From positions 1-38,174 of the forward strand of contig DVDV01000019.1 of the NCBI GenBank assembly GCA_015296075.1: a stretch of DNA of 38,174 nucleotides, read 5' to 3'. A program made the position numbers and the translations under genes. Within the stretch, counting starts at the first letter, position 1. The number at the start of each line of letters is the position of its first letter. This document shows positions 1,486-30,881 of the stretch, in pieces. Source of the DNA: Leptolyngbyaceae cyanobacterium M33_DOE_097 (lineage in GTDB: Bacteria > Cyanobacteriota > Cyanobacteriia > Leptolyngbyales > Leptolyngbyaceae). The notes beneath the pieces are model-generated. The model worked only from the letters and a program-made list of their open reading frames with translations. It was not told the DNA's origin and searched no databases.

Positions 1486-1493
1486 TCTTCTAA

Positions 1494-5008: not shown

Positions 5009-5032
5009 AACATCCCCAAGGATTGATCTGAA

Positions 5033-5065
5033 AAACCCCCAAATCCTCAAAGAATCCGGGGGTTT
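5033..5065 (-). terminator. Rho-independent terminator of pnp
   Basis: On the minus strand AAACCCCC pairs with GGGGGTTT, and the stem can extend inward through GGATTC with G-U pairs. The 3' arm is followed by TTTTT-rich sequence. It lies 21 bp past the pnp stop codon. Confidence 0.8.
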
Positions 5066-5086
5066 GGCTGTTTAAGTTAAAGCGAG

Positions 5087-10700: not shown

Positions 10701-11053
10701 AGCACGACCCCCAGGGGCCACGCCTGTTCATTCTGTCGCTCAAAGCGGGTGGTGTCGGTTTAAACCTGACTCGCGCCAACCATGTCTTTCACTTCGATCG
10801 CTGGTGGAACCCGGCTGTTGAAAATCAAGCCACCGACCGCGTGTTTCGAATTGGGCAAACACGTAATGTGCAAGTCCACAAGTTTGTCTGCACTGGCACG
10901 CTTGAAGAAAAGATTCACGACATGATCGAGAGCAAAAAAGCCCTGGCTGAGCAAGTGGTCGGCACCGGGGAAAACTGGCTGACAGAACTCGACACCGACC
11001 AACTACGCGACTTACTCTTGCTCGATCGCCGCGCCATCATTGGCGAGACATGA
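7703..11053 (+). CDS. SNF2/RapA-family DEAD/DEAH-box helicase
   Basis: A 1116-residue Swi2/Snf2 ATPase with the large N-terminal region (about 1-560) typical of bacterial SNF2 proteins carrying the helicase-associated DUF3670 domain. The motor starts with FRGELRPYQARGVGWLAFL and has Walker A DDMGLGKT (about 645-652), motif II DEAQ (about 746-749) and TGTPVENRL. The second RecA lobe has RALIFTQFSEWGKLLQ, LKAGGVGLNLT and QATDRVFRIGQ (about 1040-1050). These enzymes translocate on double-stranded DNA to remodel protein-DNA complexes; the bacterial role may resemble RapA, which recycles RNA polymerase, but that is inference. It starts at ATG 7703 (MALLHGSWL), which matches the family N-terminus. 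No restriction or phage-defence partner lies nearby, so a defence role is not supported. Confidence 0.93.
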   Translation: MALLHGSWLISTSALKVSQTSEPTTDRTFSEPALEGLFLWGEAWRRTEPQVFDPPTLAPHPYGLLQDELLKFLHELQQTGSIRLPESLAKFAVATTDQLLSWRSRPLAVPSYPVTGDAETLQAAAVLPLHSAATEPEPLFLYPWQVEGIFLPAAEAIALLNSMPLSAVDQNTQIGGDLRFWSHVTRWSLDLLARDKFLPTIELQNDQSGIARWSPLLDSSADQIRLAQFIKVMPVVCQMYAPLQAEAETPGLAMALPSEPQELLQSFISQLIDTHVRAVAASYNLSPAPEKTGRVNLSRQPGGSKTVAIASPTKEWLEALQQPHGTVATSGLQALAQALNTWVTPLQNRRFEVNLYRTCLYLHPPAANETTWRLEYFLQAIDDETFLISAPVIWNNPVAQLRYQGRAIAQPQETFLMGLGLASRLFAPIEPSLQEARPQFCPLNPFQAYDFIKSTAWRLQDSGIGVLMPESLSSQGSWANRLGLKIQAQTGKLQKGQRLGLQSLLNFQWELTIGGQTLSKAEFDRLVALNMPLVEINGEWVELRPSDVKAAQQFFATRKDQPALSLEDALRISTGDTQMIEKLPVVGFEASGPLQDLINTLTGNRTLTPIEEPDEFRGELRPYQARGVGWLAFLEQWGLGACLADDMGLGKTIQLIAFLLHLKEQDNLKAPILLVCPTSVLGNWEREVKRFAPTLKVTVHHGDQRPKGKDLVKAVKGKDLIVTSYPLVQRDLKDLQAIAWQGVVLDEAQNVKNPEAKQSQAVRQLETQFRIALTGTPVENRLSELWSIMDFLNPGYLGPKNFFQRRFATPIERYGDTDSLRTLRSLVQPFILRRLKTDKEIIQDLPEKQEMAVFCGLTAEQAALYQSVVEKSLAEIEAADGIQRRGIILAVLVKLKQICNHPALFLKDESPPPSKGRKKAEPTTQLVTPAFDLRSGKLQRLEEMLEEVTAEGDRALIFTQFSEWGKLLQAHLEKQWNQEVLFLYGSTSKKQREEMIDRFQHDPQGPRLFILSLKAGGVGLNLTRANHVFHFDRWWNPAVENQATDRVFRIGQTRNVQVHKFVCTGTLEEKIHDMIESKKALAEQVVGTGENWLTELDTDQLRDLLLLDRRAIIGET

Positions 11054-11088
11054 CATTTAGAATCGCGAATTCAATCAATCCGCAAACT

Positions 11089-11154
11089 GTACGGGCGGGT
11101 TTAGCAGAACCATCTTCAGCCTGTCGTGGATTTAACGGCAAAACCCACCCCTAC
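11089..11154. repeat. Stem-forming interspersed repeat (REP-like)
   Basis: Arms at 11089-11102 (GTACGGGCGGGTTT) and 11141-11154 (AAACCCACCCCTAC) are complementary at 12 of 14 positions and enclose about 38 bases. GTAGGGGYGGGTTT-type stems resemble dispersed repeats in many cyanobacterial genomes. It lies between the convergent helicase and WD40 genes, where it could also act as a transcription barrier. Confidence 0.55.
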
Positions 11155-11201
11155 GCAACATCGAACTGATTTAATCCATGCCCCTTAGACGATTCCCGGT
11201 G

Positions 11202-12257
11202 TTAGCGGATTTGCCAAACATTGACTGTTTTATCTTCGCTGGCGCTGGCAACGTAGCGTCCGTTGGGGCTAACGGCGATCGCCATGATTGGTCGTTTGTG
11301 GCCTTCGAGGGTGGCTAGCAATTCACCTGAATCAGTACTCCACAGACGCACGGTTTGGTCTTTACTGCCGCTGACAATCGTGCGGCCATCGGGGGTAAAC
11401 TTGACCGATCTCACCCAGTCTTTGTGCCCGGTAAACGTGCGAAGCAACTCACCGCTCGACAAGTCCCACAGTTTAATTGTCTTATCTGCACTGGCGCTGG
11501 CAATATAGCGACCATTGGGGCTGACCGCGACTGACAACACCCAGTCTGGGTGCGCCTTAATCGTGCGTAACAACCGTCCCGGATTGCGCTCATCGGGCAC
11601 CTGCCAAACGCGAATTGTTTTATCCAGGCCGCCGCTGCCACTTACCAATATCGAGCGATCCGGACTGAAAGCAACCGAGGTCACGTAATCCGTATGTCCT
11701 TTGAGTGTGGCAATTTCATTTCCGGTGCGAAGCTGCACAATGCGAATTGTCTTGTCGAGGCTGCCGGCGGCAAAGATGTCACCATCCGGCGCGATCGCCA
11801 CCGAGCGAATCATCGCCGAAAAACCTGAAAAAGTGCGTAAGAGATCGCCACTACTAATGCGCCACAACTTCACTGTCTTGTCGGTGCCACTGTTGAGCAG
11901 CGTTTGACCATCCGGACTGACGGCAACCCCATTCACGGTCAGATTGCCGGATAGGGTTCGCACTAGCTTGCCGCTTTCCAAATCCCAAAAGCGAATGCTA
12001 CGGTCAGTGCTGCCGCTGATGATTGTTTCGTTATCATTGGCGATCGCCACCGAATTCACCGAGTTGGTGTGTCCCGTAAACGTGCGAACTAAACGGCCTG
12101 AATCAACTGCTTTGGGTTGGGCTGCAACCAGTTGTGGGTTCTCGCTGGCCTGTGCCCTTGCGCTGGTGATCAGCGGCAATATGCTAGGGGCGATCGCGCT
12201 GGCAAGGAGTCCTAAGCTGATCGTGAGGGAAAAGAGGGGTCGCTTCATCGGTGTCAC
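11202..12257 (-). CDS. Exported WD40-repeat beta-propeller protein
   Basis: A 351-residue protein with a signal peptide (basic MKRP, hydrophobic core, predicted cleavage after TSARA at about residue 35). Seven WD40 repeats of about 41 residues follow, enough for one closed seven-blade propeller. Repeats carry the usual marks: GH near the start (GHTNSV, GHTDYV, GHKDWV), SPDG/SPNG turns and strands ending in W plus a polar residue (RFWDL, KLWDL, NVWQI). Blades 2 and 3 have lost the GH (SGNLT, SGFSA) and blade 3 has IVQ instead of W. There is no kinase or other domain, so it is probably a periplasmic or secreted scaffold with unknown partners. No lipobox is visible. It may be cotranscribed with the DUF2233 gene 171 bp upstream, though an inverted repeat lies between them. 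Confidence 0.88.
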   Translation of the reverse strand: MTPMKRPLFSLTISLGLLASAIAPSILPLITSARAQASENPQLVAAQPKAVDSGRLVRTFTGHTNSVNSVAIANDNETIISGSTDRSIRFWDLESGKLVRTLSGNLTVNGVAVSPDGQTLLNSGTDKTVKLWRISSGDLLRTFSGFSAMIRSVAIAPDGDIFAAGSLDKTIRIVQLRTGNEIATLKGHTDYVTSVAFSPDRSILVSGSGGLDKTIRVWQVPDERNPGRLLRTIKAHPDWVLSVAVSPNGRYIASASADKTIKLWDLSSGELLRTFTGHKDWVRSVKFTPDGRTIVSGSKDQTVRLWSTDSGELLATLEGHKRPIMAIAVSPNGRYVASASEDKTVNVWQIR

Positions 12258-12317
12258 GTCCTAACTGAATGGGGTTGTGACTAAGCTACCGATTGTGAAC
12301 CCTTGATTCTTGGTTAG

Positions 12318-12407
12318 TTTGGGTCTACCCGTTTGCCTGCGTTGGTCACGTTTTTGGCTGTTTTCGGCAAGGCTAGAGAAAAAGGTGCGATCGCGGGTAG
12401 ACCCAAA
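12318..12407. repeat. Perfect 14-bp inverted repeat
   Basis: TTTGGGTCTACCCG (12318-12331) and CGGGTAGACCCAAA (12394-12407) are perfect complements separated by 62 bases. They lie upstream of the WD40 gene and downstream of the DUF2233 gene. The element could be a small non-autonomous repeat, a terminator stem or a cruciform-forming site; no T-tract follows either arm. Confidence 0.65.
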
Positions 12408-12428
12408 GCACGATACGCGATCGCCTCT

Positions 12429-13328
12429 CTAATTCCGGCGTGTGTCTTGCACAACCAGCACCGACTTCACCGGACGAACCAGACGCGAGCCATCAGCAGC
12501 AACTTTGCCAATATGGGTCTTCCCTTGAAAGAACAGAGCTGAAGAGGTTCCACCATCTAGATTTAAGGCTTCGACTGCGCCCAGGTCACGCATTAAACCT
12601 GCCAGGGCTGGCAATGGCATCCCCGACTTGTAAGGCTCCTGAGGAAGTTGAGCCACCATCACCAAGATCACGCTATTGTCCGCTGCTAAACCAACTGCTG
12701 AGCGAGCATTGAGTGTGTTTATCCCAATTGGATCTCGCGTCATCACACCACCTTTTGAGGCAGTAAAGGCTTCTTCCTCTGCTCGTAATTGAGGTAGTAG
12801 CGTAGGGCCAGCCCCCAACTCTTCAAGCACACGGCATTCGGGTGGGGCTAGCTCAGTCGCCGGGGCAATGTCGTAGCGAATTTGGCCAGCACAGCGATAG
12901 CGGCGAAACGTGGGACGTTCCATAATCCGCGTCAGGTAAGGTGCCATTTCCAAATTATTCACCAACCGCTCATTATCTTGTGGGTTGGCAACCGTTTTCC
13001 CTTTCAGCACAACAAAGGACGTAGACTTTTGATTTACTGGGTCAAAGTAGCCCCCATTTAACACCGCGATCGCCTCTTCCCGTTTAGCAAAAGTTGCAAC
13101 GTTATCCACCGTGTCAGAAATGGCAGGCAAGACTCGGTAAGGTGCCCCCGCAGGAATTCGGATGATGTGAACGTCACTTAGCCCAATCGTTCTTCGCTCA
13201 TAGCTGAGTTCAGGCTTTGGTGGTGGAGCGGGTTCTTTCTCAGCTTTTGACCGCCTTTCAGGAACACAACCCGCCAATGCAACGGTCACTAACCCTAACA
13301 GCCAGCACCGTAACCATCGTTTTTCCAT
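12429..13328 (-). CDS. Phosphodiester glycosidase (DUF2233/NAGPA) lipoprotein
   Basis: A protein of 299 residues when started at ATG 13328. That start gives a clean lipoprotein signal: MEKRW, a hydrophobic stretch and lipobox LAGC (Cys about residue 20). Starting 60 bases upstream would bury the signal. The mature part shows DUF2233 marks: VLNGGYFDP, RDPIGINTLNARSAVGL and LNLDGGTSSALFF, the last holding the conserved Asp-Gly-Gly. Relatives include mammalian NAGPA (uncovering enzyme), which cleaves GlcNAc from a phosphodiester, and exported bacterial proteins thought to act on envelope glycans. The substrate here is unknown. The gene is divergent from a double glycosyltransferase across 336 bp, hinting at a surface-polysaccharide setting (inference). 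Confidence 0.85.
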   Translation of the reverse strand: MEKRWLRCWLLGLVTVALAGCVPERRSKAEKEPAPPPKPELSYERRTIGLSDVHIIRIPAGAPYRVLPAISDTVDNVATFAKREEAIAVLNGGYFDPVNQKSTSFVVLKGKTVANPQDNERLVNNLEMAPYLTRIMERPTFRRYRCAGQIRYDIAPATELAPPECRVLEELGAGPTLLPQLRAEEEAFTASKGGVMTRDPIGINTLNARSAVGLAADNSVILVMVAQLPQEPYKSGMPLPALAGLMRDLGAVEALNLDGGTSSALFFQGKTHIGKVAADGSRLVRPVKSVLVVQDTRRN

Positions 13329-13394
13329 GCAATTCACCCGCCAAACGTCACCAATAGCCTTTATGAACTGCATTCGCAGCACGACCAACCCTTA

Positions 13395-13429
13395 TTTCTC
13401 TCAGGCAATCCCATTATGACTGAGAGAAA
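13395..13429. promoter_or_regulatory. 10-bp inverted repeat in a divergent promoter region
   Basis: TTTCTCTCAG (13395-13404) and CTGAGAGAAA (13420-13429) form a perfect inverted repeat with a 15-base spacer. It lies 67 bp upstream of the lipoprotein start and about 235 bp upstream of the glycosyltransferase. The spacing suits a dimeric regulator's operator, or a hairpin in the lipoprotein 5' leader. The rest of the gap shows no recognisable gene. Confidence 0.4.
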
Positions 13430-13664
13430 GTTCAAGTAGAGGGCTTAAACCGAAACAGTTAAAGGATTCCTCAAATCGGCTTTAATAGCTCACTTATTTT
13501 TCACTTAATAAAAGGTTATTCAACCTACCTCTAAGGAATTCAAATTACCATCCTTTGGCGATCGCTGACAGGCTAGATCCTATCGTCACTTTGGTTTTCA
13601 TCTGAGAGCCACCTCAAGAGTCCGGGTTGACAGAAAGACCATTCCAAGACTCAATAGTTCATGA

Positions 13665-15527
13665 ATGCAAAACTCGCTGATTTTTTATATGACCGCATAC
13701 CTCGTAACCTTGAAGCGGAAATTCAAGATTTTTCTCTCAATCTGGCAACAAGATGGGGGGAAAACAGCGGTCAAACGAACTTATCAGTGGTTTCGCAAGC
13801 GATTCATCAAACAGCGGCTTTACTCAAGCTATGAAAGCTGGATTCTTGAAAATCAACTGAAACCTGAGCAGATTCAAGCGGCAACGGCAGCGATTCAAAA
13901 ATGGGAAAATCAACCCAAATTTTCCATCATCATGCCGGTCTACAACGTCAATGCGGTTTGGTTAAAGAAAGCAATTCAATCTGTACAAAATCAAATCTAT
14001 TCAAATTGGGAGCTCTGTATTGCAGATGACGCATCTACCGAAAGTTATATTGCACCTATTTTGAAGCGGTATAGTCGAGCTGATTCCCGCATTAAGGTTG
14101 TTTTTCGGACTGAGAACGGTGGTATCTCTGCCGCCAGCAATGATGCACTCGCGATCGCAACGGGCGACTATATCGCACTGCTAGATCACGATGATGAATT
14201 GGCGATCGATGCTTTGTATGAGAACGCAAAGCTGATCAATCAACATCCAGAAGCCGATTTCATCTACAGCGATGAAGATAAAATTGACCCGTCGGGCACA
14301 CGCATAAGCCCTTTCTTAAAACCAGGTTGGTCGCCTGACTTCTTTCACCAGTTGATGTACACCTGCCATTTGGGGGTCTATCGCACCAGCCTGGTACGCA
14401 AGATTGGCGGCTTTCGCAGTGAGTTTGATGGCTCGCAAGATTATGACCTGGTGCTACGCTTTACTGAACACACCCAAAACATTTTTCACATCCCCAAGTT
14501 CCTCTATCACTGGCGCATTATTCCCGCTTCAACGAGTGCCGATGAGCAGGCTAAACCCTGGGCTTACACCGCTAGCCAGAGGGCTTTGCAGGAATCGCTC
14601 GATCGCAGTCCCTATCCCGGCACAGTCGAGCAATGCACTTATGGTCCCTCAATCTACTTTAAGCTGCATCGCAAACTGATTGACCAGCCCGTGATTAGTA
14701 TTGTGATTCCCAGTGCAGGCAAAATTGGCAACGTGAATGGACAGGATTGTTGTCTGTTAGAGAACTGTGTCAAGAGTATTCTAGAAAACAGCACTTACAC
14801 AAATATTGAAGTTGTTATCATTGATGGTTGCGATATTCCAAATGAGGTGTTTGAAAGATTAGAAGAAAGACTTCTGCATAGCAAAGCGGTTGGCTATAAA
14901 TTTATTCACGCCAATGAGCCATTCAACTATTCAAAGCGCATCAATCAGGGCGTTGCAGCCGCAACAGGCGAGTTTGTCGTTCTCCTCAACGATGACACCG
15001 AAGTGATTGCTCCCGACTGGTTGGAATCCATGCTAGAGCTGGCTCAACAAAGCGGAGTGGGTGCCGTTGGGGCAAAACTATTATTTGCCGATCGCCGCAT
15101 TCAGCACGCCGGAGTTGTTGTCGTTAGCAGCAACCCAACCCACGCCTGTTATGGGTTTGATGGCGATCATCCCGGTTATGTCTTCTCAAATATGACCAAT
15201 CGTAACTATCTGGCTGTTACCGCTGCTTGTTTGATGGTCAGACACAAATACTTTGAAGAAGTCAATGGGTTAGACGAAACCTTTGATGTGAACTACAACG
15301 ATGTTGATTTTTGTCTGAAGTTGCACCGAGCAGGCTACCGCAACGTTATGACCCCCGACGCTGAGCTATTTCACTACGAATCAATGACTCGCCCACCCAG
15401 CGTTCGGCAAGATGAAATTGATCTATTTCGCGATCGCTGGATGGGATACATCAACAGTCTAGGCGGCGACCCTTATTACAACGCCAACTTCATTCAATCC
15501 AATCCATTCTTTCAGACACCCTGGTAA
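13665..15527 (+). CDS. Double-domain family 2 glycosyltransferase
   Basis: A 620-residue protein with two GT-A (GT2) domains. The first begins at about residue 86 with FSIIMPVYN and has IADDAS and the metal-binding LLDHDDELA. The second begins at about 343 with VISIVIPSAGK and has LLNDDTEVIAPDWL; later FDVNYNDVDFCLKLHRAGY and LFHYESMTR match O-antigen and rhamnan-type enzymes. It likely transfers sugars from nucleotide donors onto a lipid-linked or surface glycan. The first about 80 residues are basic and helical, possibly for membrane contact. No membrane helix is evident. No good ribosome binding site precedes ATG 13665; ATG 13689 (MTAYLVTLKRKF) is an alternative start. It stands without other glycan genes except the divergent DUF2233 lipoprotein gene. 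Confidence 0.88.
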   Translation: MQNSLIFYMTAYLVTLKRKFKIFLSIWQQDGGKTAVKRTYQWFRKRFIKQRLYSSYESWILENQLKPEQIQAATAAIQKWENQPKFSIIMPVYNVNAVWLKKAIQSVQNQIYSNWELCIADDASTESYIAPILKRYSRADSRIKVVFRTENGGISAASNDALAIATGDYIALLDHDDELAIDALYENAKLINQHPEADFIYSDEDKIDPSGTRISPFLKPGWSPDFFHQLMYTCHLGVYRTSLVRKIGGFRSEFDGSQDYDLVLRFTEHTQNIFHIPKFLYHWRIIPASTSADEQAKPWAYTASQRALQESLDRSPYPGTVEQCTYGPSIYFKLHRKLIDQPVISIVIPSAGKIGNVNGQDCCLLENCVKSILENSTYTNIEVVIIDGCDIPNEVFERLEERLLHSKAVGYKFIHANEPFNYSKRINQGVAAATGEFVVLLNDDTEVIAPDWLESMLELAQQSGVGAVGAKLLFADRRIQHAGVVVVSSNPTHACYGFDGDHPGYVFSNMTNRNYLAVTAACLMVRHKYFEEVNGLDETFDVNYNDVDFCLKLHRAGYRNVMTPDAELFHYESMTRPPSVRQDEIDLFRDRWMGYINSLGGDPYYNANFIQSNPFFQTPW

Positions 15528-15573
15528 AGCATTGTCGAGTGTCGAGATTTTTGGGATCAGCATCCCGGTGCTG

Positions 15574-15595
15574 GGGGCGTTTTGCAAAACGCCCC
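15574..15595. terminator. Perfect 22-bp palindrome between convergent genes
   Basis: An 11-bp arm, GGGGCGTTTTG, is followed at once by its exact complement, CAAAACGCCCC, giving a GC-capped perfect palindrome. It lies between the stops of the glycosyltransferase (+) and the kinase-like gene (-). It could act as a bidirectional terminator, although T-tracts are absent. CGCCCCTAC ends are typical of dispersed cyanobacterial palindromes. Confidence 0.5.
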
Positions 15596-15618
15596 TACAG
15601 AATTCACACACCCTGGGA

Positions 15619-17292
15619 TTACTGGGCTGATGTCGGACGAGGTGCAGTTGTATTTGTGCGCGATCGCAGACTGGCCATCTGATCCTCCGCGATCGCATAC
15701 CAGACCTGCCCAAACGTTTTGGGGGTCAACGTCTTACCCTGCATCTCAGGAAATAGTTGGTAAAACTGAGCATCTGCAACCGGGTCAAGGGTTTTGCTGG
15801 TTTCCCCCGTTTCGCCCAGTTCTGTGAGCCAGCGTTGATAGTCTGCCCGGCTATAGCTGCCCAGTTTGCCACGCGTTGCAGGGCTGAGTTTTTCTAAGCG
15901 ATCCATTAAAGATGTTGCGATCGCGTTCCACTCATTTTTTAGCGAGGCTTGCTGGGCTTCATCGCTCAGCGGTTGCGATCGCAGTTGAGGATACTTTTCA
16001 TAAAATTGCTCATCCACCAGGCGCGTGAAAAAGTTGTAGTCAATTCCCAAGGTGCGGCGGCGATCGCGCAGAGCGTCCGTCCCGGCGGTTGGACTCGCAG
16101 CCGGGGCAGGCGTTGCTGCACCAGTTGGTTGCCCCACAGGCTGCTCGGCTTGCTCAGGTATTAAGGGGGGTGCGCTCGGCGATGGACTTGTTGCCGTTGT
16201 TTCAGGCGTTTTTTTGAGAAATGGCAACGAGAATCCGGTTGTAACCACTCGCCACCCAATCACCGCAAACAACAGTGTCATCCCCATGCCCAACAACATC
16301 GAAGCCGCCAGGTCTGCTCCCGCCGATCGCGGTTTTCCTCGTTGGGCTGTGCGCGGTTGCTGACGAGGCTTACGCGGTCTAGTTTCTGGCTCTCGTTCTG
16401 GTGGCGGCACAACCACCTGCTTTTGCACAATTTGACGCGTCTGGAGCGATCGCGCCAAGAGTGGCTGAATCGCTTGCATCACAACCAGGGCGGAAGCAGG
16501 CCGTTTTTGTGGGTCAACGCTGAGCATCTGCCAGAGCAGTTGTTTTAATCCAGAACTGACCGAAACTTGCGACTCCCAATCAAAAATCTGCGTCTCTGGA
16601 TCGTAGAGTTCTTCGGGGGTCTTGCCCGCCAGCAGCACCACAACCGTTACCGCCAACGCAAATAGATCGCTAGCAGGGCAGGGGTTTCCGGCTACTTGCT
16701 CAGGTGGCGCATAGCCCCACTCGCCGATCGCATCATCAGGCATCACGGGATGCAACTGCAATTGGGCGACCAACTCATAAACCAGGCCAAAATTCACCAG
16801 CACAGGTAAGCCATCCGTTTCACGCAAAATCAAACTATCGGGTGTGACATTGCGATGAACCACGCCCCGCCCATGCAAATAGTGCAGCACTGGCAAGACT
16901 TGCCCGATCAGTTCTAAAATTTCTAGCTCTGAAAAAGCTTGCCCCACCTCACGCCGTTCTTCAAGCAGAACTCCGTAGCTTTTGCCTTCAATGTACTCGC
17001 GCACCCAGAAAAACCGATTTCCCTGCAGCAGGAGCGCTTGCTGACTGGGCAATTGAGCCTGCTGCAAGCTGTAGAGAATCGCTGCCCCCTGGTTAAAGCG
17101 ATGCCAGAGCGTTTGCAAACTCTCTGGGTCTGACTCAACGGGCAAAAATTCTTTCAAGACACACAACTCATTTTCCTGAAGCTGATCACGCGCCAAGTAG
17201 GTTTGCCCAAATACCCCCTGACTGCCAATGCCAACCAGGCGATAACGGTTTTGTAGTAGCGTTCCAGTCGCGACGGGGTTTGCCTGCATCAT
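15619..17292 (-). CDS. Predicted membrane-anchored pseudokinase (Ser/Thr kinase fold)
   Basis: A 557-residue protein with a Hanks-type kinase fold (about 12-280), a low-complexity basic/Pro linker, one membrane helix (about 328-352), a Pro/Thr-rich stretch and a C-terminal domain (about 405-545). It keeps a Gly-rich loop (GIGSQGVFGQTY) and the ATP-binding Lys (CVLKEF, K47). However, the catalytic HRD is HRN (146-148) and the metal-binding DFG is NFG (167-169); both codons read AAT. Loss of both aspartates predicts little or no phosphotransfer, so it may be a scaffold or allosteric partner. It is a paralogue of the intact kinase 226 bp upstream and shares that protein's C-terminal domain, but lacks its zinc ribbon and last beta-rich segment. 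A GGAGG lies 3 bases before the first of two consecutive ATGs and 6 before the second, so the start may be 17289. Confidence 0.88.
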   Translation of the reverse strand: MMQANPVATGTLLQNRYRLVGIGSQGVFGQTYLARDQLQENELCVLKEFLPVESDPESLQTLWHRFNQGAAILYSLQQAQLPSQQALLLQGNRFFWVREYIEGKSYGVLLEERREVGQAFSELEILELIGQVLPVLHYLHGRGVVHRNVTPDSLILRETDGLPVLVNFGLVYELVAQLQLHPVMPDDAIGEWGYAPPEQVAGNPCPASDLFALAVTVVVLLAGKTPEELYDPETQIFDWESQVSVSSGLKQLLWQMLSVDPQKRPASALVVMQAIQPLLARSLQTRQIVQKQVVVPPPEREPETRPRKPRQQPRTAQRGKPRSAGADLAASMLLGMGMTLLFAVIGWRVVTTGFSLPFLKKTPETTATSPSPSAPPLIPEQAEQPVGQPTGAATPAPAASPTAGTDALRDRRRTLGIDYNFFTRLVDEQFYEKYPQLRSQPLSDEAQQASLKNEWNAIATSLMDRLEKLSPATRGKLGSYSRADYQRWLTELGETGETSKTLDPVADAQFYQLFPEMQGKTLTPKTFGQVWYAIAEDQMASLRSRTNTTAPRPTSAQ

Positions 17293-23492: not shown

Positions 23493-23888
23493 TGGTCTGC
23501 CAAGCCAACTCTGCCAGGTAGAGAAGACGAATAACCAATGACCAATGGCTCAGTCATTACCGACCCTGCAAAGTTCTTTTGGTGAACTACTAAGGCAATC
23601 GCTTGCATTTGCGATACCCAAAAGCTAAGAATCCGTCCGCCTGTTAATTTTTCCTGGCTGATGGATATTTCTGTTTAACCTAAGTTTGCAACCACGGCGT
23701 TGATTAGGGCACTCTTCCAGGGAAACCTGGAGATTAAGCGAACGCTTTCGCCAAAAAATAGTTGCGCGATCGATTGGAAATCTCCCATTAAACGGTGTAT
23801 TCCTCTGAAGCAGGGTGAGGTAGTGATTCAGCGCTGCCGCTTCGCACGGTCCAATCCTACTTTTATGAAAATTGCAAGGTGCATCATC
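23493..23888 (+). other. Intergenic region upstream of the GH19 gene
   Basis: About 395 bp. The downstream frame stays open from 23700, but residues before ATG 23889 (such as RCIPLKQGEVVIQRCRF) look non-coding in character and are not expected in the family. A HIP1-like site is at about 23766. No repeat or RNA gene was recognised. Confidence 0.45.
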
Positions 23889-24782
23889 ATGATTCAACAG
23901 CTTGATTTATGGAGAGTTCAGGCATTTAGTCGGCTTGAAAGCCTGATTAAAATGATTCCAGTGGGCCCGTCTCCTCATGATGTCCCGATTGATGGCTTAA
24001 TTCGTGCTTTTAATAAACTGCCCGCTCGCCCCGCTGACAAACCACCCTACGCTGGTATTTTTGGCACAACTGACCCTAATGTTGGGCGCGTCAAAGCGCT
24101 GGAGCATCTCAAAGAAGCGAGAACTCAGCTAACGGGTGCCGAGAACGCAATTGATGGCTTGATAGATAACTTAATTCGAGCGTTGAGCAAGTTGCCTCCT
24201 CGACCTGCAACGCGTCACGCCTATGCAGGCATCTTTCCAGAGATGCGGGTCGCCATCCTGAGTACCGATGACTTGCTCAAGATTGTGCCAGGGGCACGGC
24301 GCAGTCGAGTGAATGCTTTGGCTCCCTATTTGAACCAAACCATGATTGAGTTTGACATTACAACTCCCCTGCGCCAGGCCCATTTTCTCGCCCAGGTGGC
24401 CCACGAGTCCGATCGCTTCAATGCTTTAGAAGAGTATGCTTCAGGATCTGCTTATGAAGGTCGGCGTGATTTAGGTAATACCCAGTCGGGCGATGGGGTG
24501 CGGTTTAAGGGGAGAGGGTTGATTCAAGTGACTGGCCGCACTAACTATATTGCAGCCGGACGTGCCCTCGGCGTGGACTTAATTCGTAACCCGCGTCGAT
24601 TGGCTGAGCCAGATCTGGCTTGTCGCAGTGCTGGTTGGTATTGGAATACACGCCAGCTAAATGGCATCGCTGACCGAGACGATGTGAGAAGAATTACGCG
24701 GCTGATTAATGGTGGTTATAACGGATTGCAAGACCGCCTGGAATTGCTGCACTACGCAAAACGAGTATTGCGCCTCTCGTAG
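23889..24782 (+). CDS. Glycoside hydrolase family 19 (chitinase/lysin-like) protein
   Basis: A 297-residue protein. The C-terminal about 170 residues are a GH19 domain of the phage-lysin type: HFLAQVAHESDRFNALEEY with the expected catalytic Glu (E173 in HES), RFKGRGLIQVTGRTNY (about 205-220), then CRSAGWYWNTRQLNGIAD and ITRLINGGYNGLQDR. Such enzymes cleave beta-1,4 bonds in chitin or peptidoglycan. The N-terminal part contains a duplicated 25-residue motif, IDxLIRAxxKLPxRPA to YAGIF, at residues 34-58 and 92-116 (17 of 25 identical). There is no signal peptide, so export would need a holin, an injection system or cell lysis. ATG 23889 is chosen because AAGGTG lies 7-8 bases upstream; the frame is open further up. 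No phage structural genes are nearby. Confidence 0.85.
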   Translation: MIQQLDLWRVQAFSRLESLIKMIPVGPSPHDVPIDGLIRAFNKLPARPADKPPYAGIFGTTDPNVGRVKALEHLKEARTQLTGAENAIDGLIDNLIRALSKLPPRPATRHAYAGIFPEMRVAILSTDDLLKIVPGARRSRVNALAPYLNQTMIEFDITTPLRQAHFLAQVAHESDRFNALEEYASGSAYEGRRDLGNTQSGDGVRFKGRGLIQVTGRTNYIAAGRALGVDLIRNPRRLAEPDLACRSAGWYWNTRQLNGIADRDDVRRITRLINGGYNGLQDRLELLHYAKRVLRLS

Positions 24783-24860
24783 TTCACATCCGTAAGCTAA
24801 GCTGAACAAGAACGGCAACTTCTGAAAAGAGGGTGCCGTCCGTTGTTTTTAGGACTGGCA

Positions 24861-26513
24861 ATGACTGACGATCGCCCCCCCTTGTTCTCGGTATGCCCAA
24901 AGGAAACCCTCTCTATGCAGACTCGTGACGGGGTGCGGCTGGATGCCGATGTCTACCGCCCCGATGCGGTGGGTGAGTTTCCGGTGCTGTTAATGCGGCA
25001 ACCCTACGGGCGAGCGATCTCGTCCACGGTGGTCTACGCGCATCCAGTTTGGTATGCGGCTCACGGTTATATCGTTGTGATTCAAGATGTGCGGGGACGC
25101 GGCACCTCTGAAGGCACGTTTCAGCTCTTTGCCAATGAAATCGAAGACGGTTTTGATGCTGTGAACTGGGCTGCGCAACTCCCTGGCAGTGATGGTCAAG
25201 TCGGGATGTATGGCTTCTCGTACCAGGGCATGACTCAACTCTATGCTGCGGTTAAAAATCCGCCTGCTTTAAAGGCGATCGCGCCTGCAATGTTAGCCTA
25301 TGACCTCTATACGGACTGGGCTTACGAAGGGGGGGCGTTTTGTCTGCAAGCCAATTTGGGTTGGGCGATTCAGCTAGCGGCTGAGACGGCTCGCCGAAAA
25401 GGAGATGCTGAAGCCTACCGCACGTTAGTATCTGCGGCGCGAAATCTCCCCGTTTGCGAAGTGATGCCAACACGCTCTGGGCTGCTCAAACAGTTAGAAC
25501 CGGACTCGTTTTACCATGACTGGTTAGAGCATTCTACTCCTGGCCCCTACTGGGAAGCCCTTTCACCTAAGACCTGGTTTACCGAGATCGATCTGCCAAT
25601 GCTGCACATCGGTGGTTGGTATGACACCTTTCTCAGGGGAACGCTTCAGCTCTACGAAGCAATGGCGGCTCAAAGTACCCAGCGGCAGCAGTTAGTGATT
25701 GGCCCCTGGAGTCATTTACCGTGGAGCCGTAAGGCTGGGGCAATGAATTTTGGGGCCAATGCAGTAAGCGATTGCGATCGCCTTCAGATTCGCTGGTTTG
25801 ACCATTTCCTCAAAGGCGTTGATACAGGTCTGCTCGACGAAGCGCCGATTCGAGTCTTTGAGTTAGGGGGCGATCGCTGGCGCGAGTTTGACTTTTGGGA
25901 AGCCGGACAAACGCAAACCTTTTACCTGGTGAGTGATGGGTTAGCCAACTTACGTGAGCAAAGCGGCAGCTTAGCAACAGAAGAGCCTGTTCTACCTGCC
26001 ACCGATTTTATTGTTCACGATCCCTGGCGGCCTGTGCCTGCGCTCGGTGGACATGCTGCCGCACCTGCCGGATGTTTTGACCGCTCTAGTCTGGATGGCC
26101 GCAGTGACATTGCAACCTACACCACTACCCCGCTCAGCAAACCGTTACACCTCGCTGGTTCGATCGTGGCTGAAATCGACTGCACCGCCGATACCCCCAG
26201 TTTTGACCTGTGTGCAGTGGTGTCAGACGTGCATCCAAATGGGGCGGTTTACAACTTGGCGCAAGGCTACCAGCGTGTCGAACCGGGGGCATCAAATTTA
26301 GTCAAAATTACTTTGCAATCGACCTGCGCCTGCATTCAACCCGGTCATGCACTCCGCTTAAGCCTCAGTGGAGCTTGTTTCCCGGCTTACCCTGTGAATG
26401 ATGGCAACGGCACCCCAGCAGGAGAAGCCCGCTTGATGAATCAACAAATTATTACCCTCAGTGTCCATTCAGGGGGAGTGCAAGCCTCGCGCCTGATCGT
26501 CACGATCGCCTGA
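24861..26513 (+). CDS. CocE/NonD family alpha/beta hydrolase (S15 type)
   Basis: A 550-residue hydrolase of the X-Pro dipeptidyl-peptidase S15 / cocaine esterase family. The N-terminal alpha/beta-hydrolase domain has QTRDGVRLDADVYRP, QDVRGRGTSEG and the nucleophile elbow YGFSYQG (Ser120). Catalytic Asp255 is in GGWYDTFLRG and His285 in GPWSHLPW, completing the triad. A C-terminal jelly-roll domain (about 330-550; SDVHPNGAVYNLAQGY, LRLSLSGACFPAY) is typical. No signal peptide is seen, so it is probably a cytoplasmic esterase, amidase or acylase; the substrate cannot be told. ATG 24861 has AGGA six bases upstream and is preferred over the in-frame TTG at 24843. Confidence 0.93.
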   Translation: MTDDRPPLFSVCPKETLSMQTRDGVRLDADVYRPDAVGEFPVLLMRQPYGRAISSTVVYAHPVWYAAHGYIVVIQDVRGRGTSEGTFQLFANEIEDGFDAVNWAAQLPGSDGQVGMYGFSYQGMTQLYAAVKNPPALKAIAPAMLAYDLYTDWAYEGGAFCLQANLGWAIQLAAETARRKGDAEAYRTLVSAARNLPVCEVMPTRSGLLKQLEPDSFYHDWLEHSTPGPYWEALSPKTWFTEIDLPMLHIGGWYDTFLRGTLQLYEAMAAQSTQRQQLVIGPWSHLPWSRKAGAMNFGANAVSDCDRLQIRWFDHFLKGVDTGLLDEAPIRVFELGGDRWREFDFWEAGQTQTFYLVSDGLANLREQSGSLATEEPVLPATDFIVHDPWRPVPALGGHAAAPAGCFDRSSLDGRSDIATYTTTPLSKPLHLAGSIVAEIDCTADTPSFDLCAVVSDVHPNGAVYNLAQGYQRVEPGASNLVKITLQSTCACIQPGHALRLSLSGACFPAYPVNDGNGTPAGEARLMNQQIITLSVHSGGVQASRLIVTIA

Positions 26514-26842: not shown

Positions 26843-29677
26843 TTAAGGGGCTGGCAGCAGTGGTGAGGCAAGCGATTGCTTCGCTTCAGCGTGCAACTCT
26901 ACATTGTCAATGTGAGACTGAATCTTCTCGGCAATGACCTGTACGTTTGGCTCTTGCAACATGCTAGAGTGCCCACCCGGAATATCGTAAGCCTGCACTC
27001 CTTGCGTAGCCCGTTCACCCCAACCCAATAACGGGTCACTAAACCGCTCAATATAGGGGGTATCGTCAATTGGCGTATTGTCAAAAATAGGACTTCGTTT
27101 GGTTGCCCGATAGAGTTGAATTTCTCCATCAAACAAACATTGAGGTGTATATTGCTCTCTGGCTAAAGCCAGAATGTTACGTACGGGAATATGCTTCACG
27201 AATGCAGGTAGCTGCATGTCATGGTCAAGAAAATACTTAAAGAGAACAAGCTGGAACTGGTCTCGCAGCGCTTCGTAGTTTTTTCTCACCTCATAGGAGA
27301 TCAGGTTCACCGTTCGCTGCTTCATCTGATTTAGAAGAAAGAGCGCTTGCCTGTGGGGTTTCATTTCAGCACTCTTGCGGAAGATCGTCGAGAAACGATC
27401 GAGGCGTTGGTTGAGAATGTAGCCACTCTTTTCGGTTGCCTCAACATCGGCTGCATCAATGATTGCCACCATGCCAACCTGCTGCCCCTGCTGTTGCAGT
27501 TGCACAGCCACCTCAAACGCTAAAACCCCACCAGCACATAGCCCACCCAACAAGTAAGGGCCTTCGGGTTGCACCTTGCGAATCGCGCGAACATAGGAGG
27601 TTGCCATCTCTTCGATGCGCGTATGCAAGATCGGGAAATCGTCTGAACCGTGAGGTTGCACTCCATAAACAGTGAGTGAAGGCGACAGGCGATTGGCTAA
27701 CGAGCGATAGAGCAGCGTTTCGCCATCTCCATCATGAATGATAAAGAAGGACGATCGCCCCGTTCCCTGTTTCAGCAGCACCGTCATTTCGCGAATCGTA
27801 GCCTCGTTTGAGCGCAAAACCTGAGCTAGTTCGGCGATCGTAGGAGCGGTCACTAATGTGCTGAGCGGTAGCTTCTTGCCAAATTTCTGTTCCACTTTGG
27901 AGAACAGCTGAACGGTCATCAACGAATCACCGCCCAACTCAAAAAAGTTATCTTTAACTCCAATCGGTTGAACCCTCAATAACTCTTCCCAAATTTGGGC
28001 CAAACCAACCTCAAACGCATCTTTGGGTGCAACAAAGACTGAGTCAAAGCAGGTCTGTTGCTCAGGTGCAGGCAAAGCGCGACGGTCAAGCTTCCCATTG
28101 GGGTTGAGCGGAAACTCTGTCATCTCTACAAACGTGGCAGGCACCATATAGGATGGCAATTTATCAGCCAAATAAGCACGCAGGTGCTTTGGCTCAATCA
28201 TTTCCGCTTCACGAATGTAGTAGGCAACCAGGCGCTTGTTTCCGGGGACATCTTCACGAACGACGACAACCCCGTCTTTGACGCCAGGACATTGCTTTAA
28301 GCTGGCCCCGATTTCTTCTAGCTCAATCCGAAAACCGCGAATCTTAACTTGATAATCAATCCGACCTAAAAATTCGATATTGCCATCCGGTAGATAGCGG
28401 CCTAAATCTCCAGTGCGGTATAGGCGATCGCCCGGTTGATTACTAAAAGGATTTAAAACAAACTTTTCATTGGTTAAATCTGGACGGTTGAGATAGCCAC
28501 GGGCTAACCCAGCACCGCCGATATAAAGCTCGCCAGCTTCCCCTTCTGCAACGGGTTGCAAGTCAGAGTCGAGCAGATAAATCTGGGCGTTGGTAATCGG
28601 TTTGCCAATGGGTGCGATCGCCCGTTGACTATTACGTTCACAGCACCATGAAGTGGCATCAATCGATGCCTCTGTAGGGCCGTAAACATTGTGGAGAACG
28701 CCATCGAGATCGAGCCGTTCAAAGAATTTTGCTTGCAGATCGAGCGGCAAGCCCTCACCACCGCAAAACATATACCGCAACCCACGACATACTTCAAAGC
28801 CAGGTTGGTCTAACAAAACCCGCAACATGGAAGGAACAAGAGCAATCACAGTAATTTGCTGTTGACCAATCAGCTGTAGCAGGTAAGCCAGATCTTTTTG
28901 CCCCCCTGGTTTTGGCAATACCACTTGAGCGCCACAAGCAAGCGGCCAAAAAATTTGCCAAACCGATGGGTCGAAGCTGAACGAAATGTTTTGGAGAACG
29001 CGATCGCTCTCGGTGAGAGGAAAAGTGGTTAACCGCCAGTGCAGCTGATTAATGATGCCACCGTGGGGAATCATAACTCCTTTAGGCTGCCCAGTTGAAC
29101 CCGATGTATGGATTACGTAAGCAAGACTGGCACTGGTTGCTCCGCTTTCGATATTTTCTTCATTTTGATCTGCAAAAGCCTGCCAGTCATCAGCTAAGGC
29201 AATAACCCGTGCCTTGGTATCAGGCAGCACATGGAACAGATGCTCTTGTGTTAGAATTACGGAGACTTGCGTGTCTTGCAGAATGAAATCAAGCCGATTT
29301 GTTGGATAAGCGGGATCAATTGGAACGTAGGCTCCTCCAGCCTTCAGCACTGCTAAGAGGCTGACAATCATCTGAAGCGAAGGTTCCGCACAAACCCCGA
29401 CAAGCACTTCAGGGGCAACTCCTAAACCCCTTAAGTAATGTGCCAACTGATTTGATCGCTGGTTGAGCTGAGCGTAGGTCAATGAACCCTGCTCAGACAT
29501 CACCGCGATCGCGTCAGGAGTCCGCACAGTCTGTGCTTCAAAAAAGTGGTGGAAGCAGTCTATTGAGCCAATAAACTGATCGTTACTCCAGGCGTCACCC
29601 GGAGATGGATTAATTCCACCTAAAGAGTTGTCCTTTACACTCATGTCATACAAGACATTTTTGCTTGCTATGCCCAT
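26843..29677 (-). CDS. NRPS-like A-T-TE enzyme with a cysteine thioesterase
   Basis: A single-module nonribosomal peptide synthetase-like protein of 944 residues without a condensation domain. Adenylation domain (about 45-540): HTSGSTGQPKG, SFDPSVWQIF, NVYGPTEAS, YRTGDLGRYLPDG and the A10 Lys in NPNGKLDRR. The key Asp that binds a substrate amino group (D236, in FDPSVW) is present, favouring an amino acid over a keto acid. A hand-aligned specificity code reads D-P-W-A-M-C-V-I-D-K; no substrate is assigned. Carrier domain: FFELGGDSL with phosphopantetheine Ser585. Thioesterase (about 640-944): GGLCAGG, with Cys714 replacing Ser, Asp741 exactly 27 residues later and His903 in PGGHSSM, so the triad is Cys-Asp-His. 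It needs a phosphopantetheinyl transferase from elsewhere. The frame also opens at TTG 29695; ATG 29644 is another start. It is divergent from a DUF6875-like gene. Confidence 0.93.
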   Translation of the reverse strand: MGIASKNVLYDMSVKDNSLGGINPSPGDAWSNDQFIGSIDCFHHFFEAQTVRTPDAIAVMSEQGSLTYAQLNQRSNQLAHYLRGLGVAPEVLVGVCAEPSLQMIVSLLAVLKAGGAYVPIDPAYPTNRLDFILQDTQVSVILTQEHLFHVLPDTKARVIALADDWQAFADQNEENIESGATSASLAYVIHTSGSTGQPKGVMIPHGGIINQLHWRLTTFPLTESDRVLQNISFSFDPSVWQIFWPLACGAQVVLPKPGGQKDLAYLLQLIGQQQITVIALVPSMLRVLLDQPGFEVCRGLRYMFCGGEGLPLDLQAKFFERLDLDGVLHNVYGPTEASIDATSWCCERNSQRAIAPIGKPITNAQIYLLDSDLQPVAEGEAGELYIGGAGLARGYLNRPDLTNEKFVLNPFSNQPGDRLYRTGDLGRYLPDGNIEFLGRIDYQVKIRGFRIELEEIGASLKQCPGVKDGVVVVREDVPGNKRLVAYYIREAEMIEPKHLRAYLADKLPSYMVPATFVEMTEFPLNPNGKLDRRALPAPEQQTCFDSVFVAPKDAFEVGLAQIWEELLRVQPIGVKDNFFELGGDSLMTVQLFSKVEQKFGKKLPLSTLVTAPTIAELAQVLRSNEATIREMTVLLKQGTGRSSFFIIHDGDGETLLYRSLANRLSPSLTVYGVQPHGSDDFPILHTRIEEMATSYVRAIRKVQPEGPYLLGGLCAGGVLAFEVAVQLQQQGQQVGMVAIIDAADVEATEKSGYILNQRLDRFSTIFRKSAEMKPHRQALFLLNQMKQRTVNLISYEVRKNYEALRDQFQLVLFKYFLDHDMQLPAFVKHIPVRNILALAREQYTPQCLFDGEIQLYRATKRSPIFDNTPIDDTPYIERFSDPLLGWGERATQGVQAYDIPGGHSSMLQEPNVQVIAEKIQSHIDNVELHAEAKQSLASPLLPAP

Positions 29678-30152: not shown

Positions 30153-30881
30153 ATGCGACTTTACTCAACCGCTGAAATCAATCAGTTGCGGCATGAACTG
30201 CCATATTTAGCTCAGACTTCTGACTGGCTTCGTGACTTTCTTGCAAAGCCTCATCGTGATTTGGGTCGCCCAGGTCCAGTGTGCCCCTTCCTGCCAAAAG
30301 CTTTAGATTTAAATTCAATTCGTCTTACAGAAGTTCAAGCTAAAGGGCTTAATTTAGAACAGTTAAAAGACATCGTTAGAGACTATCGAGATATTTTTCT
30401 AGAGTTGGAACCTAAACATGGTGATCTTGCTTACTTCAAGGCAATTATGCTGGTGTTTCCCGATATCAGTGCCGATGAAGCGCTTGTTTTGATTGATGGC
30501 GTTCAACGAGAGCTAAAGCCGTTTTTTGTAGAAATGGGGTTAATGCTTGGTGAATTTCACGAGCGTAGTGAAAGCCCAGGTTTACACAATCCTGATTTTC
30601 GCCCCCTGCGCAGTCCGGTACCGATGCTGGCGATTCGTTTCATGGCTGAATCTGACTTACCCTTTTTACAGCGATCGACCGATGAACCGCATCTGCGAGT
30701 TCGCTACTTAGAGGCGTATTTGACTCGTATGGCTTCCGTCATTCGAGATGAGAAGAAACTGCAAAAAGCCAAAGAAGCGTTGGCGATCGCCTATTCAGAG
30801 CAACAGTTTAATCCGGGTCAGATGCCCCAGCAGAAAGTCAGCAAGTGCCCCTTTGCACGGCTTGCACGGGTCTTTAGCTAA
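30153..30881 (+). CDS. Small conserved protein resembling DUF6875
   Basis: A 242-residue soluble protein with no signal peptide or membrane helix. The central region HGDLAYFKAIMLVFPDIS, then GLMLGEFHERSESPGLHNP and RSPVPMLAIRFMAESDLPFL, resembles proteins annotated DUF6875; I recall these near biosynthetic genes but cannot confirm that here. Cys-Pro-Phe occurs twice, in GPVCPF (about 41-46) and in KCPFAR near the C-terminus (about 231-236), flanking the domain; a metal, heme or disulfide role is possible but not shown. The reaction is unknown. It is divergent from the A-T-TE enzyme gene, suggesting a partner in the same pathway (inference). ATG 30153 is chosen because it starts the conserved MRLYSTAEINQLRHELP segment; the frame opens at GTG 30102. 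Confidence 0.6.
   Translation: MRLYSTAEINQLRHELPYLAQTSDWLRDFLAKPHRDLGRPGPVCPFLPKALDLNSIRLTEVQAKGLNLEQLKDIVRDYRDIFLELEPKHGDLAYFKAIMLVFPDISADEALVLIDGVQRELKPFFVEMGLMLGEFHERSESPGLHNPDFRPLRSPVPMLAIRFMAESDLPFLQRSTDEPHLRVRYLEAYLTRMASVIRDEKKLQKAKEALAIAYSEQQFNPGQMPQQKVSKCPFARLARVFS

What the first reader, a model, noticed from the sequence alone, without database searches (positions are those of the whole stretch)
26843..29677. Stand-alone A-T-TE synthetase with a Cys-Asp-His thioesterase
The protein has one adenylation domain, one carrier domain and one thioesterase, but no condensation domain, so it cannot make a normal peptide bond with an upstream unit. The thioesterase nucleophile is Cys (GGLCAGG) rather than Ser, with Asp 27 residues later and His in PGGHSSM. 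Known A-T-TE enzymes (RalA, fungal atromentin-type synthetases) dimerise aryl keto acids, but their A domains lack the Asp that is present here. Cys thioesterases are known in a few pathways, for example the beta-lactone-forming ObiF of obafluorin. An amino-acid-activating A-T-Cys-TE enzyme could therefore form a strained lactone, an amino-acid dimer, or transfer an aminoacyl group to an external acceptor.
Basis: partly seen in the sequence, partly recalled or inferred. Interest (0 to 1): 0.8.

Follow-up and report, generated by a model that had tools for sequence, protein, structure and literature searches.

The report
Natural thioesterase swap in cyanobacterial synthetase
A one-amino-acid loading enzyme from a cyanobacterium, encoded beside a predicted heme enzyme, looks like a natural hybrid whose usual release domain was replaced by one with a cysteine in its active site, which offers a natural comparison of the two kinds of release domain.

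Summary
Window 26843-29677 (-) encodes an intact 944-residue A-T-TE protein without a condensation domain, with Cys714 as predicted nucleophile, Asp741 27 residues on and His903.

(1) The divergent neighbour (30153-30881) is a DUF6875 protein, a family reported as heme-binding tryptophan oxidases. In two cyanobacterial families DUF6875 goes with NRPSs whose A domain reads DPW[AGT][TFI]G[CV]IDK. All 73 genomes with a close printed A-domain match also carry DUF6875.

(2) The enzyme is a natural chimera. Its A domain belongs to that DUF6875-linked family (33 Ser TEs and this one Cys TE among 36 proteins read). Its TE belongs to a separate clade, Cys in every member examined. The join is near residue 577.

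(3) That Cys clade often has a glycosyltransferase gene nearby, also occurs as FkbH-T-TE, and carries a second conserved Asp near the ObiF/SulM spacing. A beta-lactone is therefore not excluded, though AB3403 (position-I Asp) is the top sequence match.

Most likely the pair makes an oxidised amino acid that is loaded on T and passed on from the Cys. Substrate and product are unknown. New variant of a known kind.

The parts
26843..29677 (-). A-T-TE synthetase, 944 aa, ATG start (frame opens at a TTG at 29695)
28091..29542 (-). Adenylation domain (AMP-binding plus AMP-binding_C), code DPWAFGVIDK, member of the DUF6875-linked DPW clade
   Evidence: domains; code; quick tree, SH-aLRT 99
27818..28003 (-). 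Carrier (T) domain, FFELGGDS; Ser585 codon at 27923-27925
27949..27949 (-). Most likely chimera join (about residue 577, just before the carrier Ser motif); approximate, the T domain itself is poorly informative
   Evidence: (maximum of the cumulative difference; 0 of 2000 block shuffles reach the statistic)
26918..27745 (-). Thioesterase domain of the Cys clade
   Evidence: trees
27536..27538 (-). Cys714 codon (TGT), predicted nucleophile
   Evidence: Cys in the aligned clade members
27455..27457 (-). Asp741, position-I acid (+27)
   Evidence: D or E in the Cys clade
27062..27064 (-). Asp872, second conserved acid 31 residues before the His
26969..26971 (-). His903 of PGGHSSM
30153..30881 (+). 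Divergent partner gene, DUF6875 (PF21780) heme-type oxygenase candidate, 242 aa from the ATG; frame opens at GTG 30102; conserved Cys44 codon at 30282-30284

Best explanation
The gene is one half of a portable two-gene biosynthetic unit, a DUF6875 heme-type enzyme plus a DPW-code A-T synthetase, in which the synthetase lost its usual Ser thioesterase and gained one from a separate Cys-thioesterase clade by recombination in or near the T domain. Shown by sequence: the pair, the conserved A-domain code, the chimera, the intact motifs. Inferred mechanism: DUF6875 oxidises an amino acid, before or after loading; the A domain adenylates the dedicated amino acid and loads it on T; Cys714 takes the aminoacyl group as a second thioester, activated by His903 with Asp741 and/or Asp872; the acyl group is then passed to an acceptor. 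Rough odds for the last step, given that the unit reading is right: transfer to an external amine or hydroxyl 0.45; hydrolysis to a free modified amino acid after oxidation on the carrier 0.30; self-dimerisation or diketopiperazine 0.15; strained lactone 0.10. The substrate is not known. Given the reported chemistry of DUF6875, an oxidised tryptophan-type residue is the first candidate, an N-oxygenated arginine-type residue the second.
For: Divergent DUF6875 neighbour. DUF6875 as heme-binding Trp oxidases: PMC13307353, passages. DUF6875 in 8 of 292 genomes drawn across the phylum, 106 of 217 of one family (104 over the cut-off) and 4 of 42 of the window's family. Adjacency from the DUF6875 side, in the flank held (about 1.5 kb, some cut by contig ends): 4 of the 8 phylum-wide loci and 14 of all 38 loci read, window included, have an A-domain frame. 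From the NRPS side, the printed A-domain matches of 66% identity or more fall in 73 genomes, and 73 of 73 carry DUF6875. In 36 DPW proteins found in the 48 loci the code varies only as DPW[AGT][TFI]G[CV]IDK. Same divergent layout with a Ser TE in two genomes of the window's family (L263, L264), in different surroundings. Chimera: A domain in the DPW clade (19 of 62 rows, SH-aLRT 99, quick tree); TE in the Cys clade (16 of 48 rows, 100/100); forcing Q's TE together with eight DPW-linked TEs rejected, AU p 1e-58, with the L263 TE alone p 6e-4; join near residue 577. No near-identical second copy of either half in the genome (next best 47% over most of the protein, 56% over T-TE), so a repeat-collapse assembly chimera is unlikely. 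Acyl transfer: Cys-clade TEs also occur as FkbH-T-TE (3 of 3 scanned), where hydrolysis would be futile, and a glycosyltransferase family lies in the fetched stretch of 14 of 23 Cys-clade loci.
Against: No substrate, product or activity is shown. The loci were picked because they hold the pair or a DPW A domain, so '27 of 32 adjacent' is not a frequency. The 73-genome count uses only the rows printed, a 66% limit chosen after seeing them as a stand-in for the code, and 43 of the 73 are one genus (21 genera in all, against 28 of 56 genera with DUF6875 overall; hand count from the tables). 24 of 38 DUF6875 loci show no A domain in the flank held. With the A-core columns removed, Q's A domain has no starred placement; its nearest rows are still DPW and holding the clade together is not rejected (p 0.79), but a swap of the A core cannot be formally excluded. 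One other DPW synthetase has a Cys TE: L120, where DPW is an inner module and the terminal TE (GHCFGG) scores only 84 bits to Q's. The DUF6875 model is weak: best of five 71.7 pLDDT, the others 40-54, four sequences; its AglA match (Z 8.9) is 2 units above unrelated rows and near the 7-8 the tool calls typical without a clear match; no sequence match to AglA or YqcI/YcgG was found. No glycosyltransferase was recognised directly beside the window gene, so the FkbH argument is by clade, not by locus.
Confidence: 0.6

Rival explanations
1. MysE-like transfer: the enzyme attaches its amino acid to one specific small acceptor (as the shinorine A-T-TE attaches serine to mycosporine-glycine; recalled), and DUF6875 only tailors the result.
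For: Same A-T-TE architecture; shinorine-type loci L257/L258, in L258 with DHQ-synthase, O-methyltransferase and ATP-grasp genes confirmed; A domains 53% identical; DPW and Ser-type A domains share a larger clade (25 rows, SH-aLRT 88).
Against: Different A code (DPWAFGVIDK against DVWHISLIDK), no acceptor-building genes recognised beside the pair, and no third gene family in more than 7 of 32 pair loci.
Confidence: 0.2
2. Activate, oxidise on the carrier, hydrolyse: A-T holds the amino acid, DUF6875 hydroxylates it on T, and the TE hydrolyses it to a free modified amino acid, like the separate A-T, P450 and TE proteins of nikkomycin-type pathways (recalled).
For: No third gene is shared widely; DUF6875 remnants lie next to the NRPS in two genomes with an intact copy elsewhere (L252, L253); several TE lineages serve DPW A-T units (the DPW label, window included, changes at least 5 times), as expected if release is generic.
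Against: DUF6875 enzymes are reported on L-tryptophan; a Cys TE is not the usual hydrolase; in longer NRPSs the DPW residue is internal (L120; L261), so a free amino acid is not the general product.
Confidence: 0.25
3. ObiF/SulM-like ring closure: the Cys TE closes a beta-lactone from a beta-hydroxy aminoacyl group made by DUF6875.
For: Cys nucleophile; a second Asp (872) 31 residues before His903, near the 30-residue spacing of ObiF (1254/1284) and SulM (2926/2956); D in 15 and E in 1 of 16 Cys-clade rows, D in 0 of 32 other TEs at that column.
Against: The loop is gap-rich, so the column depends on the alignment, and 3 of the 32 others have D in the neighbouring column. Position-I Asp is kept (D in 14, E in 2 of the same 16 rows; ObiF has Gly there). 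AB3403 is the top sequence match and tied first by structure (Z 22.5 against 22.2 and 21.8 for the next TEs). No N-acyl group is possible without a C domain.
Confidence: 0.08
4. Not a TE swap but an A-core swap: a Cys-clade A-T-TE (like the C37 paralogue) received the DPW substrate-binding core.
For: The identity difference is strongest in residues 201-360; A-core exchanges are common in NRPSs (recalled); the A flanks alone do not resolve.
Against: Residues 41-200 and 361-480 also favour the DPW group, and the divergent DUF6875 layout matches L263/L264. Either way the protein is a chimera of the same two families.
Confidence: 0.15

Closest known systems
Shinorine synthetase (MysE type, Ava_3855), A-T-TE
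   Same: A-T-TE with an amino-acid A domain and no C domain, cyanobacterial; 53% identity in the A domain to two examples here (L257, L258)
   Different: Serine code and Ser TE (GWSFGG); in L258 it sits with DHQ synthase, O-methyltransferase and ATP-grasp genes, not with DUF6875
AB3403 of Acinetobacter (PDB 4zxh), C-A-T-TE with a Cys TE
   Same: Top sequence match of the TE among solved structures; tied first by structure (Z 22.5, rmsd 2.1 over 190 residues; rank 18 by Foldseek E-value, where Pks13 TEs lead); Cys nucleophile; position-I Asp
   Different: Has a C domain; matched range of about 259 residues against 290 here; itself described as uncharacterised (PMC11298585, passage)
ObiF and SulM thioesterases (beta-lactone and beta-lactam formers)
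   Same: Cys nucleophile; an Asp about 30 residues before the His
   Different: They use position II (ObiF has Gly at position I) behind a full peptide module
DUF6875 tryptophan oxidases (apparently the 'cytochrome P422' preprint cited in PMC13307353) and AglA-type thiolate-heme hydroxylases
   Same: Neighbour gene is a clear DUF6875 member; conserved Cys at residue 44, the number of AglA's heme ligand
   Different: A link to an A-T-TE was not seen in what I could read; no detectable sequence similarity to AglA
RalA and atromentin-type A-T-TE synthetases (recalled)
   Same: Three-domain layout
   Different: They activate aryl keto acids; this A domain keeps Asp235

Membership tests
DUF6875 (PF21780), for the neighbour | Match above Pfam gathering score | tested here: met
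   214.1 bits against a cut-off of 24.5
DUF6875 (PF21780), for the neighbour | Heme binding and amino-acid oxidation | not testable with these tools
   Only reported for relatives (PMC13307353, passages)
YqcI/YcgG heme hydroxylases (AglA, DcsA) | Pfam/sequence match to the family | tested here: not met
   No PF08892 hit listed at E up to 10, though HMMER's filters drop most matches above 0.1; none in the genome; no AglA chain in a profile search
YqcI/YcgG heme hydroxylases (AglA, DcsA) | Sandwich fold with a Cys-ligated heme | tested here: inconclusive
   Five AglA entries top the list (Z 8.6-8.9), weak model; conserved Cys44, 44 of 45 sequences
DUF6875-linked DPW A-T family | A code DPW[AGT][TFI]G[CV]IDK and clade membership | tested here: met
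DUF6875-linked DPW A-T family | Ser thioesterase when a TE is present | tested here: not met
   33 Ser, 1 Cys (this gene), 1 TE without the motif and 1 without TE among 36 proteins; a further one, L120, ends in a Cys TE of another kind
Cys-TE clade | Clade membership and GxCxGG | tested here: met
   24 of 24 closest loci Cys
MysE-type shinorine synthetase | A-T-TE architecture | tested here: met
MysE-type shinorine synthetase | Serine code and mysA-C neighbours | tested here: not met
ObiF/SulM beta-lactone/lactam TE | Cys nucleophile | tested here: met
ObiF/SulM beta-lactone/lactam TE | Catalytic Asp at position II, not I | tested here: inconclusive
ObiF/SulM beta-lactone/lactam TE | Ring-closing activity | not testable with these tools
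   needs enzyme assay

The most novel reading that the evidence does not exclude
DUF6875 plus DPW A-T(-TE) is a self-contained, widely spread cyanobacterial oxidise-activate-transfer unit that makes a non-proteinogenic residue, and its TE is swapped repeatedly in nature. In this genome a Cys aminoacyl-transferase TE, from a clade that decorates glycans with small acyl groups (aminoacyl, glyceryl, hydroxyacyl) and has two competing catalytic Asp positions, has replaced the Ser TE and redirected the residue to a new acceptor.
Probability: 0.25. Interest if true: 0.82.

Novelty: new variant of a known kind. Interest (0 to 1): 0.6.

Why it matters
It links a little-studied heme-enzyme family to a dedicated, unassigned A-domain code, so the substrate of some three dozen synthetases read here becomes testable with two small genes. 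It is also a natural domain swap: related A-T halves drive a Ser TE in sister genomes and a Cys TE here, the comparison NRPS engineers try to build, with a natural crossover near the carrier Ser motif. Finally, a Cys-TE clade with both known Asp positions occupied, found on aminoacyl, hydroxyacyl-type and FkbH loaders and often near glycosyltransferases, raises the possibility that these so-called thioesterases are acyl transferases.

Tried and rejected
Rejected: sequencing error at the Cys codon (24 of 24 closest loci Cys). Assembly chimera of two held genes (no near-identical second copy; not tested with reads). RalA-type keto-acid A domain (Asp235 present). Composition shift as proof of transfer: GC 48.6% before the join and 50.3% in the TE, GC3 45.9 and 52.8%, too small to weigh. 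Promoter and terminator scans gave no more than shuffles. Other conserved neighbours of the pair: the next family is in 7 of 32 loci. Sequence match of DUF6875 to solved structures: none credible. A-domain specificity: no match to a code I can recall; the comparison codes (Ser, Gln, Gly, Thr, Phe) and the GrsA numbering are recalled and come from no call. ObiF did not appear among the 50 structural rows shown, which says nothing about membership. DPW-linked TEs without Q as one clade: rejected only modestly (p 0.015), so repeated TE exchange besides the window gene is likely, not proven. Rows dropped: A hits of 430 residues or fewer and TE hits of 150 or fewer (62 A and 30 TE rows kept); TE segments under 180 (48 rows kept). 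One search counts 36 'Cys' rows that include repeats of the same locus and two rows (L092, L100) outside the clade, and its first alignment placed a D of those two rows in the Asp872 column; the 16-row counts in this report come from the rows printed and the exceptions. The 23 loci include one locus twice (L042 and L068).

Papers: PMC13307353, PMC11298585, PMC6668435, PMC3252866, PMC8073705 and PMC12866846 were seen as passages only (with abstract text where the passages include it); the P422 preprint was not held and is known only from its reference entry; all others as search listings.
Full report
Observation. The window encodes a 944-residue protein on the minus strand (ATG at 29677, stop at 26843) with an adenylation domain, a carrier and a thioesterase and no condensation domain. 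The motifs looked for are intact; the nucleophile is Cys714, Asp741 is 27 residues later and His903 lies in PGGHSSM. The A domain has the amino-acid Asp and reads DPWAFGVIDK (numbering recalled).

The neighbour. The divergent gene (ATG 30153, stop 30881) is DUF6875 (214 bits). A 2026 paper states that DUF6875 proteins are heme-binding and oxidise L-tryptophan, and proposes C-7 hydroxylation for its own member from a gene deletion and motif (PMC13307353, passages). In an alignment of 45 DUF6875 sequences, Cys61 of the GTG frame (Cys44 from the ATG) is kept in 44, and several His, Arg and Asp in 44 or 45; the window protein keeps them. A model from four sequences (best pLDDT 71.7, the other four models 40-54) puts the thiolate-heme hydroxylase AglA first among 992 aligned chains, Z 8.6-8.9 for five entries, the next unrelated row 6.8. 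AglA ligates heme through Cys44 (PMC12866846, passages). No sequence similarity to AglA or to YqcI/YcgG was found, and a best Z of 7-8 is typical of models without a clear match, so this is a lead.

The pair is conserved. DUF6875 was found in 8 of 292 genomes spread over the phylum, all in two families, in 106 of 217 of one of them (104 over the cut-off) and in 4 of 42 of the window's family. In the short flanks held, 4 of the 8 phylum-wide loci and 14 of all 38 loci read, window included, have an A-domain frame; some flanks are cut by contig ends. Of 48 loci then read in full, 36 hold an A domain with code DPW[AGT][TFI]G[CV]IDK, in A-T-TE proteins of about 900-960 residues, A-T-C-A-T-TE proteins of about 2000 residues, or as an inner module (also L120). 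Those loci were chosen because they held one or both genes. A separate check: among 208 genomes searched with a DPW A domain, the printed matches of 66% identity or more (a limit set after seeing the list) fall in 73 genomes, and 73 of 73 carry DUF6875, against 106 of 217 overall. By genus the same tables give 21 of 21 against 28 of 56 (hand count); 43 of the 73 are one genus. Among 32 chosen loci the NRPS (32) and DUF6875 (27) are the only widely shared genes; the next family is in 7. In two genomes the NRPS is preceded by DUF6875 remnants (L252, L253) while an intact copy lies elsewhere.

The chimera. Two genomes of the window's own family (L263, L264) have the same divergent pair with the identical code DPWAFGVIDK but a Ser TE, GYSFGG, in different surroundings. 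Along the protein, identity to the DPW group (14 sequences) is higher up to the T domain and identity to the Cys-TE group (11 sequences) is higher after it; the cumulative difference peaks at residue 577, and 0 of 2000 block shuffles reach the observed statistic. In trees, the A domain sits in the DPW clade (19 of 62 rows, SH-aLRT 99, quick tree without bootstrap) and the TE in a Cys clade (16 of 48 rows, 100/100). Forcing the TE together with eight DPW-linked TEs is rejected (p 1e-58; with the L263 TE alone, p 6e-4). With the A core cut out, the A flanks have no starred placement but lie nearest to DPW rows, and the held clade is not rejected (p 0.79). The DPW-linked TEs other than the window's also fall in several places (the label, window included, changes at least 5 times; the others as one clade rejected at p 0.015), so TE exchange in this family probably recurs. 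Of the 36 DPW proteins, 33 have a Ser TE, one (the window's) a Cys TE, one a TE without the motif and one no TE; L120 ends in a Cys TE that scores only 84 bits to the window's.

The Cys clade. The closest 24 loci of the genome scan (165 bits or more; best 80 of 537 kept) are all Cys, from cyanobacteria, planctomycetes, proteobacteria and one actinobacterial bin. Architectures include A-T-TE, C-T-TE, C-A-T-TE, A-KR-T-TE and FkbH-T-TE (3 of 3 scanned; ten loci group together by similarity). A family-2 glycosyltransferase occurs in the fetched stretch of 14 of 23 loci of this clade (one locus is in the list twice). Because hydrolysing a glyceryl or plain aminoacyl thioester would be futile, this favours acyl transfer as the clade's job; that is inference. 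The TE model (pLDDT 90) is close to AB3403 (Z 22.5, 190 residues), tied with a bifunctional NRPS TE (7crn, 22.2) and Pks13 (21.8); Foldseek alone ranks Pks13 first and AB3403 18th, and by sequence AB3403 is first. SulM's authors name AB3403 as the only other structurally known Cys TE, with a position-I Asp (PMC11298585, passages). Among 16 clade rows Asp741 is D in 14 and E in 2; a second Asp (872), 31 residues before the His, is D in 15 and E in 1, and D in 0 of 32 other TEs, of which 3 have D in the next column of this gap-rich loop. ObiF and SulM have their catalytic Asp 30 residues before the His. So the clade may use either; without coordinates I cannot decide.

Known A-T-TE enzymes. A near described one is the shinorine synthetase type. 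L257 and L258 each hold an A-T-TE of this type in what reads as such a cluster; in L258 the neighbours were confirmed as DHQ synthase, O-methyltransferase and ATP-grasp. Its A domain is 53% identical to the window's but has a serine code and a Ser TE. The window enzyme resembles it in layout but fails its code and context tests.

Mechanism. Most likely the heme enzyme and the A domain share one residue: DUF6875 makes or modifies it, A loads it on T, Cys714 accepts it and passes it on. The acceptor and the residue are not known. Given that reading I give 0.45 to transfer to an external nucleophile, 0.30 to hydrolysis after on-carrier oxidation, 0.15 to dimerisation and 0.10 to a strained lactone.

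Novelty. No single part is new in kind, but the DUF6875-NRPS unit with its own A-domain code and this natural Ser-to-Cys TE replacement were not found in print in the searches made (open-licence PubMed Central only).

Noticed in passing
L070 (7850-10909), L076, L088; also L072, L073, L075, L077, L078, L081, L082, L085: FkbH-T-TE proteins (FkbH domain confirmed in L070, L076 and L088; the others group with L070 and L076 by similarity) carry the same kind of Cys thioesterase, in cyanobacteria, planctomycetes and proteobacteria, several with a family-2 glycosyltransferase nearby; possibly a glycerate-transfer system.
   Followed up: partly
L054-L059, L068 (= L042), L069, L071, and the first modules of L265, L266: Synthetases of the Cys-TE clade with an A code lacking the Asp (SIFHSGICMK or SIFHFGLSLK); in L042 Pfam sees only fragments of a C domain. 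A prephenate-dehydrogenase-like gene (Pfam checked in L068) recurs in L068, L071, L265 and L266, suggesting an aryl keto or hydroxy acid substrate.
   Followed up: partly
L039 (G000:C74), 743-16820: In the same genome a C-T-TE with a Cys TE (56% identical over the TE) lies with a separate A domain, a DegT aminotransferase, glycosyltransferases, an asparagine synthase and an NAD-synthase-like protein.
   Followed up: partly
L040 (G000:C37), 2256-5000: A second A-T-TE with a Cys TE in the same genome (code DVELAGGVTK), on a short contig.
   Followed up: no
L252 1512-1673 and L253 9020-9583: Remnants of DUF6875 directly before DPW synthetases in genomes that keep an intact DUF6875 elsewhere: relocation or replacement of the partner gene.
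   Followed up: partly
window 97-1564: A tyrosine-recombinase gene (97-1353) beside tRNA-Gly (1494-1564): possible end of an integrated element.
   Followed up: no
window 23700-26513: A GH19-chitinase-like protein and a CocE/NonD hydrolase lie next to the synthetase on the other strand; neither has a match in the two sister loci L263 and L264.
   Followed up: no
window 27062-27064 and relatives: Cys-clade thioesterases have a conserved Asp at both known catalytic positions, unlike the Ser-type TEs aligned with them; which one works is unexplained.
   Followed up: partly
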